NCBI GenBank assembly: GCA_003223645.1
Contig: QHVT01000007.1
Span: forward strand, 232,531 to 296,530
DNA length: 64,000 nucleotides
DNA from: Acidobacteriota bacterium
Lineage (GTDB): Bacteria; Acidobacteriota; Thermoanaerobaculia; Gp7-AA8
Direction of reading: 5' to 3'
Shown: piece by piece, positions 32,328 through 37,399 of the stretch
How the letters are laid out: every line of letters begins with the position of its first letter
Numbering within the stretch: position 1 is the first letter of the stretch
Made by a program: the position numbers and the translations under genes
The notes under the pieces: model-generated
Told to the model about the DNA's origin: nothing
Databases searched by the model: none
The model's input: only the letters and a program-made list of their open reading frames with translations

Positions 32328-32424
32328 GCGTTCATTGTACGGCTTCGTTTGGCCGCTTCGACCCGCCGACTGAAATATGCCGGACCGCGTCCTTCGACCG
32401 CAGCGGCCCACGCTTCCCTAACAA

Positions 32425-32443
32425 GTGGGTAGGGAATTCCCAC
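32425..32443. promoter_or_regulatory. Inverted repeats upstream of the five-gene operon (1)
   Basis: GTGGG..CCCAC flanks the perfect palindrome GGGAATTCCC (32432-32441). Possible operator. No clear -35/-10 pair is seen in the gap. Confidence 0.4.
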
Positions 32444-32490
32444 GCGGCGTCACTCCATAAGTGCTGGGTTTGAGAATCATCAGAAAAATT

Positions 32491-32506
32491 ACGTGCGTGT
32501 ACACGT
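32491..32506. promoter_or_regulatory. Inverted repeat upstream of the five-gene operon (2)
   Basis: ACGTG-CGTGTA-CACGT palindrome about 15 bp before the start codon, followed by the ribosome binding site AAGGAG. Confidence 0.4.
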
Positions 32507-32520
32507 CTAAGGAGTAGCTC

Positions 32521-34551
32521 ATGGACACCGAAGACGTGCCGATCGAGCAGGCGGCTGCGTCGGCACTCGAGCTGTTATCGCGCAACGAGACTTCCATCGC
32601 GACGTTCGCAGACGTGATGGACGTGACGACTGTTCTCGAAACGTTCAGCGAAGATCCCTCGGCCGAAGAAGCATGGCTGAGCGATTGGGTTGATGCGTTG
32701 CAGGCGGACATTGAAAGCGCCATTCGCGCTCGTGGCGATGGCAAACGCGCGAGGCTGTTGCATGAGGTGGAGCTCTGCCAGTTGCGATTGCAGGAGCGTG
32801 TGCAACTGCTGCGGGACCTGGAAGTGCATCGAAGAGATGCAGGTACGCTTCAGAAGGAGATCGATGATGTCGAGATTTCCGAAGCAAAACGGCGCCGCGA
32901 TTTGATCAATCGCAGAATCGCAGCAGCCAAGCAGCGCGTAGCCGAGCAGATCCAGAAGCTCGAAGAGGAGCGGGTGAAGGCACAAGAACAGCTCGAACGC
33001 GCGGCGCTCGGCGATTACGTCGAGCGGAAGAAACAATGGGAGGACTCTGCGAGCGATCGCGAAAGACGAGCCGGCGCTCTCAGACAGGATGCGGAGTATG
33101 CCCGGAAATTAGCTGAGGCAACGCAAACGCGAGCGGCGACATTCAACAAGAATCTCATCACACGCACGGTGGCCGGGTACCTGGTGTGGATCGGCTATGC
33201 ATCGGTTCCTGCAACCGGGGCAGTGTTCGCGCAGCTCATCGCCGGTGAGAACTTCTCGCTCGACTGGATTATCGAAACCGCGCGCAGTTTCGCCGATACT
33301 CCATGGGTCTGGTTCCAGCGTTTCTGGCCCCTCATGCTGCTGTTCCTCATAGGACTGGCGCTGCTGCTCGTGACTACCTATGCCGTCGACAAATTGATCT
33401 ATCGCCTCGATCCGCGCTGGCGCTGGCGCCAGCGTGAGCGAGCCAATCCGATCGGACAGCCGGCCATTACTCGTCGCTCATTTGTGCGTCTGTTCGCGCT
33501 CGTTCCTTACGCTCTAATTGGCTGCATGGCCGTCGCGTTCGTCGCAGCCGGGCAGGTTAAGGACGACATCTTCCGTTCATTCATCTCTTCGGCCGCGGAC
33601 ACCGCGATCGGCAGTACCATCGCGATGATGGCTACTGCCGTGATGATGATGTACATCATCAAGGTCATCGAGCCGCGAGAGAGTGGTCCCACCTTCCGTC
33701 GTTCGTGGGAAATGGTCCTGGCACCTGGCGCAATCGTTTTCGCTGTTGCGTTAGCCGCTGTCATCGCGAATGACAAGCGCTGGAGTGCATGGATGTTGTT
33801 TATGCTTCTCGGCTCTCTGTCGCTGGCCTACGGTTTGATCTATCACGGCATCTACAAAGACGCGGAGAAGGCACAGGAAGAGCTGGACACGATCAACGCT
33901 CAAATTTTCAGCGAGCAATTCGGCCCGGAGCGGCCGAAATTCACCGGTGCTTTCCTGCAACAAAGTACTGAGCTCGCTGTACGCTATGCGCGCGATCGGC
34001 AGCATCTCGAGAACATTGCAGCTAGGCTGAGTCTGGGATTCATCCCGCTGTACGCACCGCCTCCGCCAAAGTTGAAGGTTGTCCGTTACTGGCTGACGCC
34101 AGCGCACTGGTTCACGAGCGTCCGCACTAACGGCCACGAGCCACCGCAGAAACAATTCGAGATCATGGATAGCGAGATCGCACCGGAGATTCTCGAGGAA
34201 CTAGATCGATTCACGCGACAGAAAGCGCATCTGGAAATTGCGAAACGCGCGGCCGACAAAAAAGTCGAGGAACTCGAGCAGGCGACGAGCCGAGAGCGGC
34301 ACGAACAAATCCGAAACGACCTTTCCGACATGCTCGGCCGGATCGACGAGTTCAATGCCGAGGACGAGGAGTGGATCGCGAGGGCAGACAAGGGGGCGAA
34401 TGAATTGTGGCTGCGCATTCGCGGCCAGGCCGCGTCGTCGGCGCCACTTCGACAAAGCGTTCGGTCGTGGAATGGCCAGCGAACGCCAAATTCACGCCCC
34501 GGCACGCGGCCGCCTGCGTTGCCACCGGATTCAGGAGAAGACAGAAAATGA
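32521..34551 (+). CDS. Operon gene A: coiled-coil and multi-TM protein of unknown function
   Basis: 676 residues. The N-terminal 100 residues are helical and acidic; a long coiled coil covers about 100-210 (KRRRDLINRRIAAAKQRVAE). Six TM segments lie between about 220 and 446, and a second coiled coil at about 560-625 is followed by a Pro/Arg-rich tail. No domain recognised with certainty. Base and codon use are visibly less GC-biased than neighbouring genes, hinting at transfer. It is coupled to gene B by ATGA overlap. Probably an inner-membrane scaffold or sensor. Confidence 0.75.
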   Translation: MDTEDVPIEQAAASALELLSRNETSIATFADVMDVTTVLETFSEDPSAEEAWLSDWVDALQADIESAIRARGDGKRARLLHEVELCQLRLQERVQLLRDLEVHRRDAGTLQKEIDDVEISEAKRRRDLINRRIAAAKQRVAEQIQKLEEERVKAQEQLERAALGDYVERKKQWEDSASDRERRAGALRQDAEYARKLAEATQTRAATFNKNLITRTVAGYLVWIGYASVPATGAVFAQLIAGENFSLDWIIETARSFADTPWVWFQRFWPLMLLFLIGLALLLVTTYAVDKLIYRLDPRWRWRQRERANPIGQPAITRRSFVRLFALVPYALIGCMAVAFVAAGQVKDDIFRSFISSAADTAIGSTIAMMATAVMMMYIIKVIEPRESGPTFRRSWEMVLAPGAIVFAVALAAVIANDKRWSAWMLFMLLGSLSLAYGLIYHGIYKDAEKAQEELDTINAQIFSEQFGPERPKFTGAFLQQSTELAVRYARDRQHLENIAARLSLGFIPLYAPPPPKLKVVRYWLTPAHWFTSVRTNGHEPPQKQFEIMDSEIAPEILEELDRFTRQKAHLEIAKRAADKKVEELEQATSRERHEQIRNDLSDMLGRIDEFNAEDEEWIARADKGANELWLRIRGQAASSAPLRQSVRSWNGQRTPNSRPGTRPPALPPDSGEDRK

Positions 34552-35765
34552 GCGATACAAACAATTGGCCGATTGTCGGGATCGACAGTAACGAGCGTTA
34601 CGATCACAGTTCGGGCGAGCCGTTACCGATGACTTACGGAGAAGTGGAGTATCGCCGCGGCTGGACTGATGGGCGTCTCGGCGTGCGAGTGCCTCATACA
34701 TATGAGGTCTACCAATTCCGAGCGCGACGCTGGTGTGACGAACATCGGCTCGCGATCGAACAAAAGGTTGAACGGGCGAGAGCGGAACGTAACTTTGCGC
34801 AGGCTCGTGCCCAGCGCGCAGAAGGCGAGGTATCACGCATCTACGTCCATTTCGTAGATGTCGATACGGAGCGCCTCGGAAGTCCAAGCAGTTACTCAGT
34901 GCTGCTTGGCATTGTCTACTGCTTCGTCGCGCTACTGCTGTGGATCGCTGATCTCCCGCTGTCGCTGCTTGCCGCGGACGGTCTCGATATTCGTACAAAC
35001 TACGCGCAGATTGCCGATCTCACGTCTCTCTTCCAAGGCTGGAAGTCGATGTGGGAACCGCTTGCCTTCTCCATCGGTATCGCTGTGCTCGGGCTTTTTT
35101 TCAAATTCGTAGCCGACTTCTTCTTCAAGCCGAAGCTGCAGCGACATGTCTGGATGAGGGTCCTCTCAACAATTCTCTTGATTGGTCTAATTACGCTCGT
35201 GATCTGGAATCTTTATTCGCTCGCGCAACTGCGTACGGGAATCAAATCGCTGCATGAAGCACAGCGTGCGGCCGCCGCCTCAGGGACGCCGCTCAACGTT
35301 ACCGCATTAACGGAGAAGATGCAAAAAGAGGCGGCGAGATCGTTCATCCTGTTAACCCTCACGTTGCCTATTATCGGCGGCATCTGTGCGTCAGTTGGCT
35401 GGAGCCGCATTGAAAGCGTGGTTCGGTACCGAACCCTTAAGAGCACTTGGGAAAAGTCACAAATGGCTGCCGACGAGCTAAATCACGAGAGTCTCGCTGC
35501 AGACGCGAATCTGCGCAGTCTCGAGAATGATGCCAAGGCGGCTCGCCAGGTTCCTGCCGAAGATGTGGCCGCTGCGGCCGAATACCTTTATGAGCAGGGA
35601 TTTACGCGCGGACGTTTAGTGCCGGAGACAATTCACAATGGTCGCCGTCTTCACGAGAGGGCGCAGTTCGCTGTGAAGCGCCTTCTGGGAATTTCGGAGC
35701 GGCAATTGAGCGAGTCAGCGTCTTCACTCGTGGAAGAGCAGATGCCGGAGGTGAGGACGCGATGA
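34548..35765 (+). CDS. Operon gene B: four-TM protein with flanking coiled coils
   Basis: 405 residues from ATG 34548 (AGGAG upstream). A cytoplasmic N-terminus with an aromatic YGEVEYRRGWTDGRLG motif is followed by a coiled coil (about 65-100) and TM helices near 118-140, 165-190, 205-228 and 268-292. A C-terminal helical domain ends in SASSLVEEQMPEV. The layout parallels gene A (coiled coil-TM-coiled coil), suggesting that the two form a membrane complex. Function unknown. Confidence 0.75.
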   Translation: MSDTNNWPIVGIDSNERYDHSSGEPLPMTYGEVEYRRGWTDGRLGVRVPHTYEVYQFRARRWCDEHRLAIEQKVERARAERNFAQARAQRAEGEVSRIYVHFVDVDTERLGSPSSYSVLLGIVYCFVALLLWIADLPLSLLAADGLDIRTNYAQIADLTSLFQGWKSMWEPLAFSIGIAVLGLFFKFVADFFFKPKLQRHVWMRVLSTILLIGLITLVIWNLYSLAQLRTGIKSLHEAQRAAAASGTPLNVTALTEKMQKEAARSFILLTLTLPIIGGICASVGWSRIESVVRYRTLKSTWEKSQMAADELNHESLAADANLRSLENDAKAARQVPAEDVAAAAEYLYEQGFTRGRLVPETIHNGRRLHERAQFAVKRLLGISERQLSESASSLVEEQMPEVRTR

Positions 35766-36592
35766 GCCGAGGTTCGCTCTCGGCGTTCGCGTTCTTGATT
35801 TTGGCGTGTGGTGCGGGGCCGGATACCGCCGTTAAGGCAGCCGCTCACAACTCCGGGGCGGCGACTCCGATTAAGGCATCATCCAGCTTGGGACCGACCA
35901 CGTTCATCGTGTTTGCTGATGTGACCCGTAGTCTCACGGACGAGGAACAACACTCGGTCATCGAAAATGTGCAGAAAGTCGTAGACATCCTTCCCCCGCG
36001 AGGTCGTCTTCTCGTATTTCCGATTCTTGAAGATGTCGAGCGCGCGAACGCGCTCATGGATCGGCAACTGCCGGAGTTACAAACAACGAGCGATGCGGTT
36101 GCGGCTGACATGCAACGCGCGTCAATGCGTAAGCAGGTCGCGGCGAGCCTCGAATCCGTTCTCCGTGGTCCGGCGCACGGCAGAGATCGTACCTGCGTTT
36201 CGGGGGCGTTGCGCAAGGCGGACGAGCTAGCAATGGACCTGCGAGACACCGTGGAGATTGTGCTCGTCAGCGACATGCTCGAGGATTGTGATGACTCTCT
36301 TCTGCGCACGCCGCTGCGACTTCAAAAATCGTCGATCAGCCAGGAACTGAAACGCGCCCGCGACTTGGCGTCTGGAGCCCTCCTGGATCTCAACGGGGCA
36401 AGCGTAACGGCAGTTTTGCCCACTGTCCCCACGTCAAAGCAGAAGGTTGCGCGCCCCCCGGTGCACGAGTTGAAGGCATTCTGGCGCGCAATTCTCGATC
36501 ACTGTGGCGATCAGCCGGCGAACTATCGGTTCGGCACGGGCTTCCCCAAGCGTTTGCTCGACTACAAGCAGCGCCAGGAAGGAGGTATTTGA
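35762..36592 (+). CDS. Operon gene C: VWA-like lipoprotein
   Basis: 276 residues. Short signal sequence with a Cys at 17 (FLILACGAG), probably lipidated although the lipobox is not ideal. The fold reads as a von Willebrand A domain: strand TTFIVFADVTRSLTDEE contains the MIDAS motif D-x-T-x-S, an RTCVSGALRKADE loop supplies a Thr/Ser position, and strand VEIVLVSDML ends in SD. It would bind a divalent metal and a protein partner at the outer face of the inner membrane. ATGA overlap with gene B. Confidence 0.75.
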   Translation: MSRGSLSAFAFLILACGAGPDTAVKAAAHNSGAATPIKASSSLGPTTFIVFADVTRSLTDEEQHSVIENVQKVVDILPPRGRLLVFPILEDVERANALMDRQLPELQTTSDAVAADMQRASMRKQVAASLESVLRGPAHGRDRTCVSGALRKADELAMDLRDTVEIVLVSDMLEDCDDSLLRTPLRLQKSSISQELKRARDLASGALLDLNGASVTAVLPTVPTSKQKVARPPVHELKAFWRAILDHCGDQPANYRFGTGFPKRLLDYKQRQEGGI

Positions 36593-36594
36593 GC

Positions 36595-36984
36595 ATGGCA
36601 GTGAATGAAGTACGCCTACTCGACGGAGCGCTGATCAAGTATGAGCGGCCGGCGAAGAATCTCTACGAAAGGGTCGAAGCTCTGGTCGAAGGTGATAAGG
36701 CGGCCAGCCGCATCATTGTCAGCATCATCGTCGGAGGGACGACAGCGTTTACCGGCGTCGCATCCGTGGCAGGCCTGGCCACGGCCATTGCCGAACGCGA
36801 ATTCTTCTTGCTCGCGACGGCAACCATCGGGACTCTCGTTGCCACTGTCTGGAGGGCGGCGACCCGCGGTCCGACGGGCGAATTGGGGGCGGCGGTAAGA
36901 CGGATCAAGGAACGCACCATGGGTGCCTATCGCGACGCGATTGCTAACGCGGGGTTAATTTCGAAAGAACGGAAAAGCTTATGA
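36595..36984 (+). CDS. Operon gene D: small two-TM protein
   Basis: 129 residues preceded by a strong AGGAAGGAGG ribosome binding site. Hydrophobic segments at about 40-63 and 71-89 with a soluble helical tail (TGELGAAVRRIKERTMGAY). No family recognised. ATGA overlap with gene E suggests the two are made in equal amounts. Confidence 0.7.
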   Translation: MAVNEVRLLDGALIKYERPAKNLYERVEALVEGDKAASRIIVSIIVGGTTAFTGVASVAGLATAIAEREFFLLATATIGTLVATVWRAATRGPTGELGAAVRRIKERTMGAYRDAIANAGLISKERKSL

Positions 36985-37370
36985 ATTTATCTATCTCCGA
37001 CGCAGCACGCAAACAGTTACGGGGCGTACCGAGCGAACCATTTGCCGTTGACGGTTTCGCAGAATTCCAGAGCTCAGTCGAGCGGTACATCGATGATTTG
37101 ATCATGGAATCCGTTCAAGTCATGAGGCGTCATGATTCGGCATCGATTTCGCCGCAATACGTCAAGATGGCTGCACAGAACATCATTCGGCGGCGAGGTC
37201 GAAAGTTGTCGGCGTTGATCAGCGCCGCCGGTGGCGCATGCCTTGCCGGCGCAGTTACGTGCGCGTGGGAGATCGCGCAGCATAAAGCTACACCTAGTGC
37301 CACAATTGCTGCTTTTGTGTTCCTGGCTGTCGGGTTGACTCTCACCTTTGTCTATGCCAACCGCCAGTAG
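36981..37370 (+). CDS. Operon gene E: histone-fold-like domain with C-terminal TM hairpin
   Basis: 129 residues. Residues about 25-70 (FQSSVERYIDDLIMESVQVM, then RRHDSASISPQYVKMAAQNI) match the pattern of the histone fold: a long central helix, a loop with a basic residue and S/T-I, then an I-x-x-x-x-V-x-x-A helix. Two TM segments follow (about 80-97, 105-125). A membrane-tethered histone-fold protein would be unusual in bacteria; the assignment is by pattern and needs profile comparison. Confidence 0.6.
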   Translation: MNLSISDAARKQLRGVPSEPFAVDGFAEFQSSVERYIDDLIMESVQVMRRHDSASISPQYVKMAAQNIIRRRGRKLSALISAAGGACLAGAVTCAWEIAQHKATPSATIAAFVFLAVGLTLTFVYANRQ

Positions 37371-37374
37371 AAGG

Positions 37375-37399
37375 GAAAGCTGCGACCTAATGGAAGTCG
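37375..37399. terminator. Hairpin between operon gene E and dnaE2
   Basis: AGCTGCGAC and GTCGTAGCT arms (one G-T wobble) in the convergent gap, overlapping the dnaE2 stop codon. There is no T-tract, so terminator function is doubtful. Confidence 0.35.

What the first reader, a model, noticed from the sequence alone, without database searches (positions are those of the whole stretch)
32412..37390. Unrecognised five-gene membrane operon with a VWA lipoprotein and a histone-fold-like membrane protein
Genes A-E are joined by ATGA overlaps (A-B, B-C, D-E) or a 2-bp gap with a strong ribosome binding site (C-D). Two are large coiled-coil/multi-TM proteins of parallel layout, one is a VWA-like lipoprotein with a MIDAS motif D-x-T-x-S, and two are small membrane proteins. 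Base and codon use are clearly less GC-rich than in the flanks, and no palindromic word arrays lie inside the block although they fill the surroundings, both pointing to recent transfer. It matches no defence, secretion or stress cassette I know. A periplasmic VWA receptor passing a signal through membrane proteins to a histone-fold (DNA- or protein-binding) domain is one possible reading.
Basis: partly seen in the sequence, partly recalled or inferred. Interest (0 to 1): 0.8.

Follow-up and report, generated by a model that had tools for sequence, protein, structure and literature searches.

The report
Mobile membrane operon with VWA lipoprotein
Five neighbouring genes that match no catalogued protein family make what looks like one membrane complex; the set has moved as a unit between Acidobacteriota genomes, is probably switched on by a dedicated stress-type sigma factor, and in relatives sits beside cell-suicide and immunity-type genes.

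Summary
The five-gene block A-E is real. It recurs in the same order in two other genomes of the same GTDB family, at unrelated sites. A is split in one of them and D-E are fused in the other. Three relatives, including the same-genus one, have dnaE2 directly next to the AI-2E permease gene (the empty site), so the window block is a ~5-kb insertion. A core of B plus C recurs in three deeper lineages of the phylum. C is confirmed as a VWA (integrin-I-like) fold with an intact MIDAS on a lipoprotein. The histone fold of E is moderately supported. No A-E protein hits a Pfam, NCBIfam or PADLOC family; A and B are not paralogues by profile comparison. New here: the operon lies behind an ECF-type promoter, GGTAGGGAA-N11-CGTCACTCC, with 28 exact genome-wide copies against 0 for the reversed control. 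The same motif precedes genes of one sigma-factor clade, an apparently autoregulated regulon. In the same-genus relative the block ends a CHAT/caspase/VWA/tubulin-like operon, and a remote C relative lies in an operon with a TIR protein. Best reading, inferred only: an accessory envelope sensor or effector module of a conflict or envelope-stress response. Function is untested.

The parts
32428..32456 (+). ECF-type promoter motif GGTAGGGAA-N14-CACTCC upstream of A
   Evidence: Only match in the window, 0 expected; 28 exact copies in this genome, 0 for the reversed control; same motif twice upstream of A in G014
32509..32514 (+). AAGGAG ribosome binding site of A
   Evidence: sequence
32521..34551 (+). 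Gene A, 676 aa: N-terminal coiled coil, about 6 TM helices, C-terminal helical domain; no family
   Evidence: 43% identical in G001; split into two ORFs in G014; distant relative next to B and C in G238
34548..35765 (+). Gene B, 405 aa: 4 TM, conserved LWIADLPLSLLAADG and TLTLPxIGGICAS segments; no family
   Evidence: 59% and 42% identical copies; profile match to G321/G271 B-like proteins 96%
35762..36592 (+). Gene C, 276 aa: lipoprotein (Cys16) with a VWA domain, MIDAS D53-x-T55-x-S57 ... T144 ... D171
   Evidence: AF2 pLDDT 79.6; VWA matches in PDB
36580..36585 (+). AGGAGG ribosome binding site of D
   Evidence: sequence
36595..36984 (+). Gene D, 129 aa: 2-TM protein, no family; fused to E in G001
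36981..37370 (+). Gene E, 129 aa: cytosolic histone-fold-like helical domain (residues 6-66) followed by 2 TM helices
32328..37386 (.). Approximate extent of the insertion between dnaE2 and the AI-2E permease gene
   Evidence: these two genes are adjacent in G001, G011 and G009; nucleotide homology to G001 stops at the dnaE2 stop codon and resumes at about 32292

Best explanation
A-E encode one membrane-anchored complex carried as a mobile accessory cassette. C is an outward-facing VWA lipoprotein that binds a protein ligand through its MIDAS site. B, the constant partner of C, and A are inner-membrane proteins with cytosolic helical domains that relay or scaffold. D and E are a small 2-TM pair, E carrying a cytosolic histone-fold-like domain that most likely dimerises as a protein-protein adaptor. 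The operon is transcribed from an ECF-type promoter by an autoregulated sigma-factor clade, so it is induced by an envelope or infection signal. It most likely acts as the envelope sensor or membrane-execution part of a conflict (immunity or cell-death) or envelope-stress response. Shown: gene order, insertion, C fold, promoter motif and its link to the sigma clade. Inferred: complex formation, topology, ligand binding, use of the promoter by that sigma factor, and the conflict role.
For: Conserved order in three genomes with a D-E fusion and an A split. B-C core in G238, G321 and G271. VWA fold for C. Empty site. ECF-type motif, -35 GGTAGGGAA and -10 CGTCACTCC, in front of A in two genomes. 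Nine of 30 loci of one sigma clade carry the motif upstream of the sigma gene, including the five best matches; sigma copies and motif counts rise together over six genomes, r = 0.84. In G001 the block follows CHAT, caspase, CHAT-TPR, VWA, Tubulin_2 and VWA genes in one co-directional run, with an ECF sigma gene divergent at its head. In G515 a C relative shares an operon with a TIR protein.
Against: The CHAT/caspase/tubulin context is seen in one of three close copies; G000 has Tubulin_2 genes elsewhere and G014 none. No enzymatic effector lies in the window block. PADLOC gives nothing. The G515 C relationship is weak (70% profile probability) and its B-like and A-like genes are not confirmed homologues. 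Regulon members are mixed (transport, lipase, ferritin-like, multicopper oxidase, membrane proteins), which fits general envelope stress as well as conflict.
Confidence: 0.4

Rival explanations
1. A-E is a membrane module of the FtsZ-like-1 (Tubulin_2)/VWA membrane-remodelling machinery; in the window genome it works with Tubulin_2 proteins encoded elsewhere.
For: In G001 it directly follows Tubulin_2 and two VWA genes in one run; G000 has Tubulin_2 genes at C21 and C23. Published FtsZl1 operons carry VWA and unrecognised TM proteins (PMC2875224).
Against: G014 and the B-C genomes G238, G321 and G271 have no Tubulin_2 match; the G001 tubulin has only a weak match in G000.
Confidence: 0.2
2. 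An ordinary envelope-stress or homeostasis complex, mobile only as part of normal accessory-gene turnover, with no conflict role.
For: ECF-type regulon with lipase, PLD, FadL, metallophosphoesterase, ion channel and many small membrane proteins.
Against: Very patchy distribution (3 of 18 family genomes), insertion at unrelated sites, and CHAT/caspase/TIR neighbours in relatives.
Confidence: 0.22
3. Part of a transfer or secretion apparatus: B and C belong with a VirD4/TraG/FtsK-like ATPase.
For: TraG/FtsK-like ATPase genes lie next to B-C in G321 and to C in G475.
Against: No such ATPase beside A-E in the three full-block loci or in G238; no conjugation genes recognised beside A-E.
Confidence: 0.1
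4. E tethers DNA to the membrane as a histone, and C-A-B control nucleoid organisation.
For: Histone-fold-like profile match of E.
Against: The fold itself is not secure (model pLDDT 52.8). The known transmembrane histone category lacks conventional DNA-binding residues (PMC11390915).
Confidence: 0.05

Closest known systems
FtsZ-like-1 (Tubulin_2)/VWA operons (Makarova and Koonin 2010, PMC2875224)
   Same: VWA protein with MIDAS, several unrecognised TM proteins, predicted membrane complex; the G001 copy of A-E sits in such an operon
   Different: No FtsZ-like gene, GTPase, protein kinase or OmpA gene in the window block
GAP1-N2 GTPase/tubulin conflict systems with two vWA proteins, one membrane-bound with vWA outside (Kaur et al. 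2020, PMC7159879)
   Same: Outward-facing vWA, tubulin, and conflict-type effectors near the G001 copy (CHAT, caspase)
   Different: No GTPase and no effector in the window block; vWA is a stand-alone lipoprotein; A, B, D and E not described in the passages read
Transmembrane histones, a minor prokaryotic histone category (Schwab et al. 2024, PMC11390915)
   Same: E: histone-fold-like domain plus TM helices
   Different: Always beside A-D in the three copies here; fused to D in G001; fold not proven for E; direct comparison with that category was not possible
Bat-type VWA proteins (BatB, PDB 3ibs)
   Same: VWA fold at the membrane
   Different: C is a lipoprotein, not TM-anchored; no MoxR, BatA or BatD-type partner in the block

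Membership tests
VWA / integrin-I domain (protein C) | alpha/beta VWA fold | tested here: met
   AF2 pLDDT 79.6, pTM 0.78; Foldseek E 1e-6 to 1e-5 to VWA chains; VIA Z 14.1, rmsd 2.9 over 161 residues to 4fx5
VWA / integrin-I domain (protein C) | MIDAS residues D-x-S/T-x-S ... T ... D | tested here: met
   D53, S57 and D171 invariant in 6 homologues, T55 conserved or S
Bacterial lipoprotein (protein C) | signal peptide with lipobox Cys | tested here: met
   LILAC in the window; Cys16 column invariant in the three close copies; by inspection, no signal-peptide program was available
Histone fold (protein E) | short-long-short helix fold with histone-like sequence pattern | tested here: inconclusive
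   61-column ungapped hhalign to archaeal histones, score 19.7, maximum of 300 shuffles 15.4, but probability 9%; Foldseek prob 0.5-0.75 to NF-Y and H4 but E above 1; model pLDDT 52.8; VIA list gives generic helices
DNA-organising histone | DNA binding | not testable with these tools
   needs biochemistry
FtsZ-like-1/VWA system | FtsZ-like (Tubulin_2) gene in the same operon | tested here: not met
   Met only in G001; not in the window, and no Tubulin_2 match in G014 at all
MoxR-vWA ternary conflict systems | MoxR AAA+ ATPase partner | tested here: not met
   No AAA+ domain in A-E by Pfam
Known anti-phage defence systems | match to a PADLOC model | tested here: not met
   no hit up to E = 1
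ECF-sigma regulon member (operon A-E) | promoter of the ECF-type motif shared with the sigma genes | tested here: met
   motif upstream of A in G000 and G014 and upstream of 9 of 30 sigma-clade genes; use by the sigma factor itself untested

The most novel reading that the evidence does not exclude
A previously undescribed mobile immune or cell-death module in which a periplasmic VWA lipoprotein senses a protein ligand and signals through two coiled-coil membrane proteins to a membrane-tethered histone-fold adaptor. It is pluggable into different effector contexts (CHAT/caspase/tubulin, TIR, TraG-type ATPase) and controlled by its own sigma-factor regulon.
Probability: 0.22. Interest if true: 0.82.

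Novelty: new variant of a known kind. Interest (0 to 1): 0.55.

Why it matters
Four of the five proteins (A, B, D, E) have no recognised family, yet they travel together with a VWA lipoprotein as an insertable unit. The unit sits next to immunity-type effectors in relatives and behind a highly specific, apparently autoregulated ECF-type promoter. The promoter gives a direct way in: it defines a regulon of roughly 13-28 mostly uncharacterised, membrane-rich operons in the genomes richest in it, and names the sigma clade to test.

Tried and rejected
Homologues of A in viral contigs and in GTDB genome contigs with single-sequence patterns: none. B alignment in viral contigs: none. B (G238) and C in plasmids by tblastn: none. 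The C alignment A4 was too diverse for pattern search. Weak P0001 hits in G280, G208, G180, G171, G201 etc. look like symporters and other unrelated membrane proteins and were dropped. PDB sequence search with C and E profiles: nothing. C against a VWA profile by hhalign: weak (78% for the full set, 95% for the remote subset), settled by structure instead. A-B paralogy: not supported. VIA-align on the D-E model: generic helical matches only, no conclusion. The first VWA profile was built on wrong strands and redone; the first shuffle parse was wrong and redone. Other phyla could not be sampled beyond the pattern scans, so absence there is not shown. Whether the window lies in a wider defence island was not tested.

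Full report
OBSERVATION. The window is part of a 348-kb contig of an Acidobacteriota genome (G000:C51); two relatives found later are public MAGs titled Acidobacteriota bacterium and Thermoanaerobaculia bacterium. GC3 is 0.59-0.68 in A-E against 0.83-0.85 in dnaE2 and the 706-aa gene. Palindromic words are depleted rather than absent. No A-E protein matches Pfam, NCBIfam or PADLOC meaningfully.

RECURRENCE. Among 61 genomes only G001 (same genus) and G014 (same family) carry A besides the window's own. Both have the whole block in order, with informative differences: in G014 A is two ORFs with an ATGA overlap, in G001 D and E are one ORF. Identities to the window: B 59 and 42%, C 60 and 47%, E 48 and 31%. 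Only these two were found by pattern in the GTDB collection.

INSERTION. The AI-2E permease gene and dnaE2, which flank the block, are neighbours within a few tens of bases in G001, G011 and G009. At the nucleotide level, homology with G001 stops at the dnaE2 stop codon and resumes at about 32292. The block is therefore best read as an insertion. The same-genus relative holds its own copy on another contig (G001:C4; the empty site is on C2). No recombinase or terminal repeat was identified, so the mechanism of movement is open.

A B-C CORE. A profile of C found relatives in G238, G321 and G271, and a wider profile found G475 and G515. G238 has A, B and C in the same order. G321 and G271 have B-like proteins beside C (profile-profile: B 96.2%, E 2e-9; C 97%, E 1e-10). 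B and C are thus the constant pair and A, D and E are more local. In G321 and G475 a TraG/FtsK/VirD4-like ATPase gene is near.

STRUCTURE. C was modelled at pLDDT 79.6 and matches VWA/integrin-I domains throughout (Foldseek E 1e-6 to 1e-5; Z 14). D53, S57 and D171 of the MIDAS are invariant across six relatives. With its lipobox, C is most likely a periplasm-facing lipoprotein (inspection). The D-E fusion modelled poorly (52.8). E has a helix pattern of about 10, 28 and a helix running into TM1. Its profile aligns without gaps over 61 columns to archaeal histones, with a score above all 300 column shuffles, but at only 9% probability. Foldseek lists NF-Y and H4 chains at prob 0.5-0.75 without significant E-values. 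I rate the histone fold as likely but unproven. K/R-rich ends suggest cytosolic termini for A, B, D and E.

PROMOTER AND REGULON. Comparing regions upstream of A in the window and G014 revealed GGTAGGRAA-N(13-15)-CACTCC, once at 32428-32456 and twice in G014. Genome-wide there are 28 exact copies in G000, 27 in G014, 24 in G005, 13 in G001, 3 in G011 and 1 in G009, against none for the pattern read backwards. Forty-seven fetched sites (27 in G000, 20 in G014) give the consensus GGTAGGGAA-N11-CGTCACTCC-T(A/T), with spacer 14 in 39 and 15 in 8. This resembles ECF promoters (GGGAA at -35, CGT at -10; general knowledge). Start codons usually follow within about 50 nt. Two G014 sites precede sigma-factor genes (L163 and L171, 31% identical to each other; L171 hits Sigma70_r2). 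Of 30 loci of that sigma clade, nine have the motif (at most 2 mismatches) upstream, including the five closest to the query, and sigma copy number tracks motif number over six genomes (r = 0.84). Regulon genes include a cyclase-NB-ARC-TPR protein conserved in G000 and G014 (62% identity), an LCAT-type lipase, a PLD, a metallophosphoesterase, a ferritin-like protein, FadL, DUF4407, an ion channel and many unknown membrane proteins. No sigma-70-type promoter was found near the block.

CONTEXT IN RELATIVES. In G001 the block is not behind this motif. It is the 3' end of a co-directional run: CHAT, a 454-aa unknown, caspase (Peptidase_C14), CHAT-TPR, VWA, Tubulin_2, VWA, A, B, C, D-E, with an ECF sigma gene divergent at the head. 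In G515 a C relative ends an operon that begins with a TIR-domain protein. Published parallels are the FtsZl1/VWA operons (PMC2875224) and the tubulin/two-vWA GTPase conflict systems (PMC7159879). None of the passages read describes A, B, D or E.

MECHANISM. Shown: operon, insertion, C fold, promoter motif and sigma-clade linkage. Inferred: C binds an extracytoplasmic protein ligand; B (with A) passes this through the membrane; D-E form a small membrane adaptor. I favour a conflict or envelope-stress response at 0.4. Rivals are a part of a tubulin-like membrane-remodelling machine, plain envelope homeostasis, a transfer apparatus, and a membrane-tethered DNA-binding histone.

Noticed in passing
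G000, G001, G014, G005 genome-wide; window 32428-32456: An ECF-type promoter GGTAGGGAA-N11-CGTCACTCC defines a regulon of about 13-28 sites in the genomes richest in it, and the motif precedes genes of one sigma clade; it is nearly absent in G011 and G009, which carry few of these sigma genes.
   Followed up: partly
L148 and L160: A cyclase-NB-ARC-TPR protein behind this promoter is 62% identical between G000 and G014, the only protein-level match between the two fetched site sets.
   Followed up: no
L150:310-10816 and L013:11390-19928: G001 operon ECF sigma (divergent) / CHAT / unknown / caspase / CHAT-TPR / VWA / Tubulin_2 / VWA upstream of A-E; a CHAT, a caspase-like and a similar-looking unknown gene also lie together in G000 at C21 (L036), without A-E.
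   Followed up: partly
L057:3547-10145: G515: TIR-domain protein, membrane and secreted proteins and a C-like lipoprotein in overlapping genes.
   Followed up: partly
L027:8395-12391 and L056:4912-9372: B-like and/or C-like genes beside a TraG/FtsK/VirD4-like ATPase in two remote relatives.
   Followed up: no
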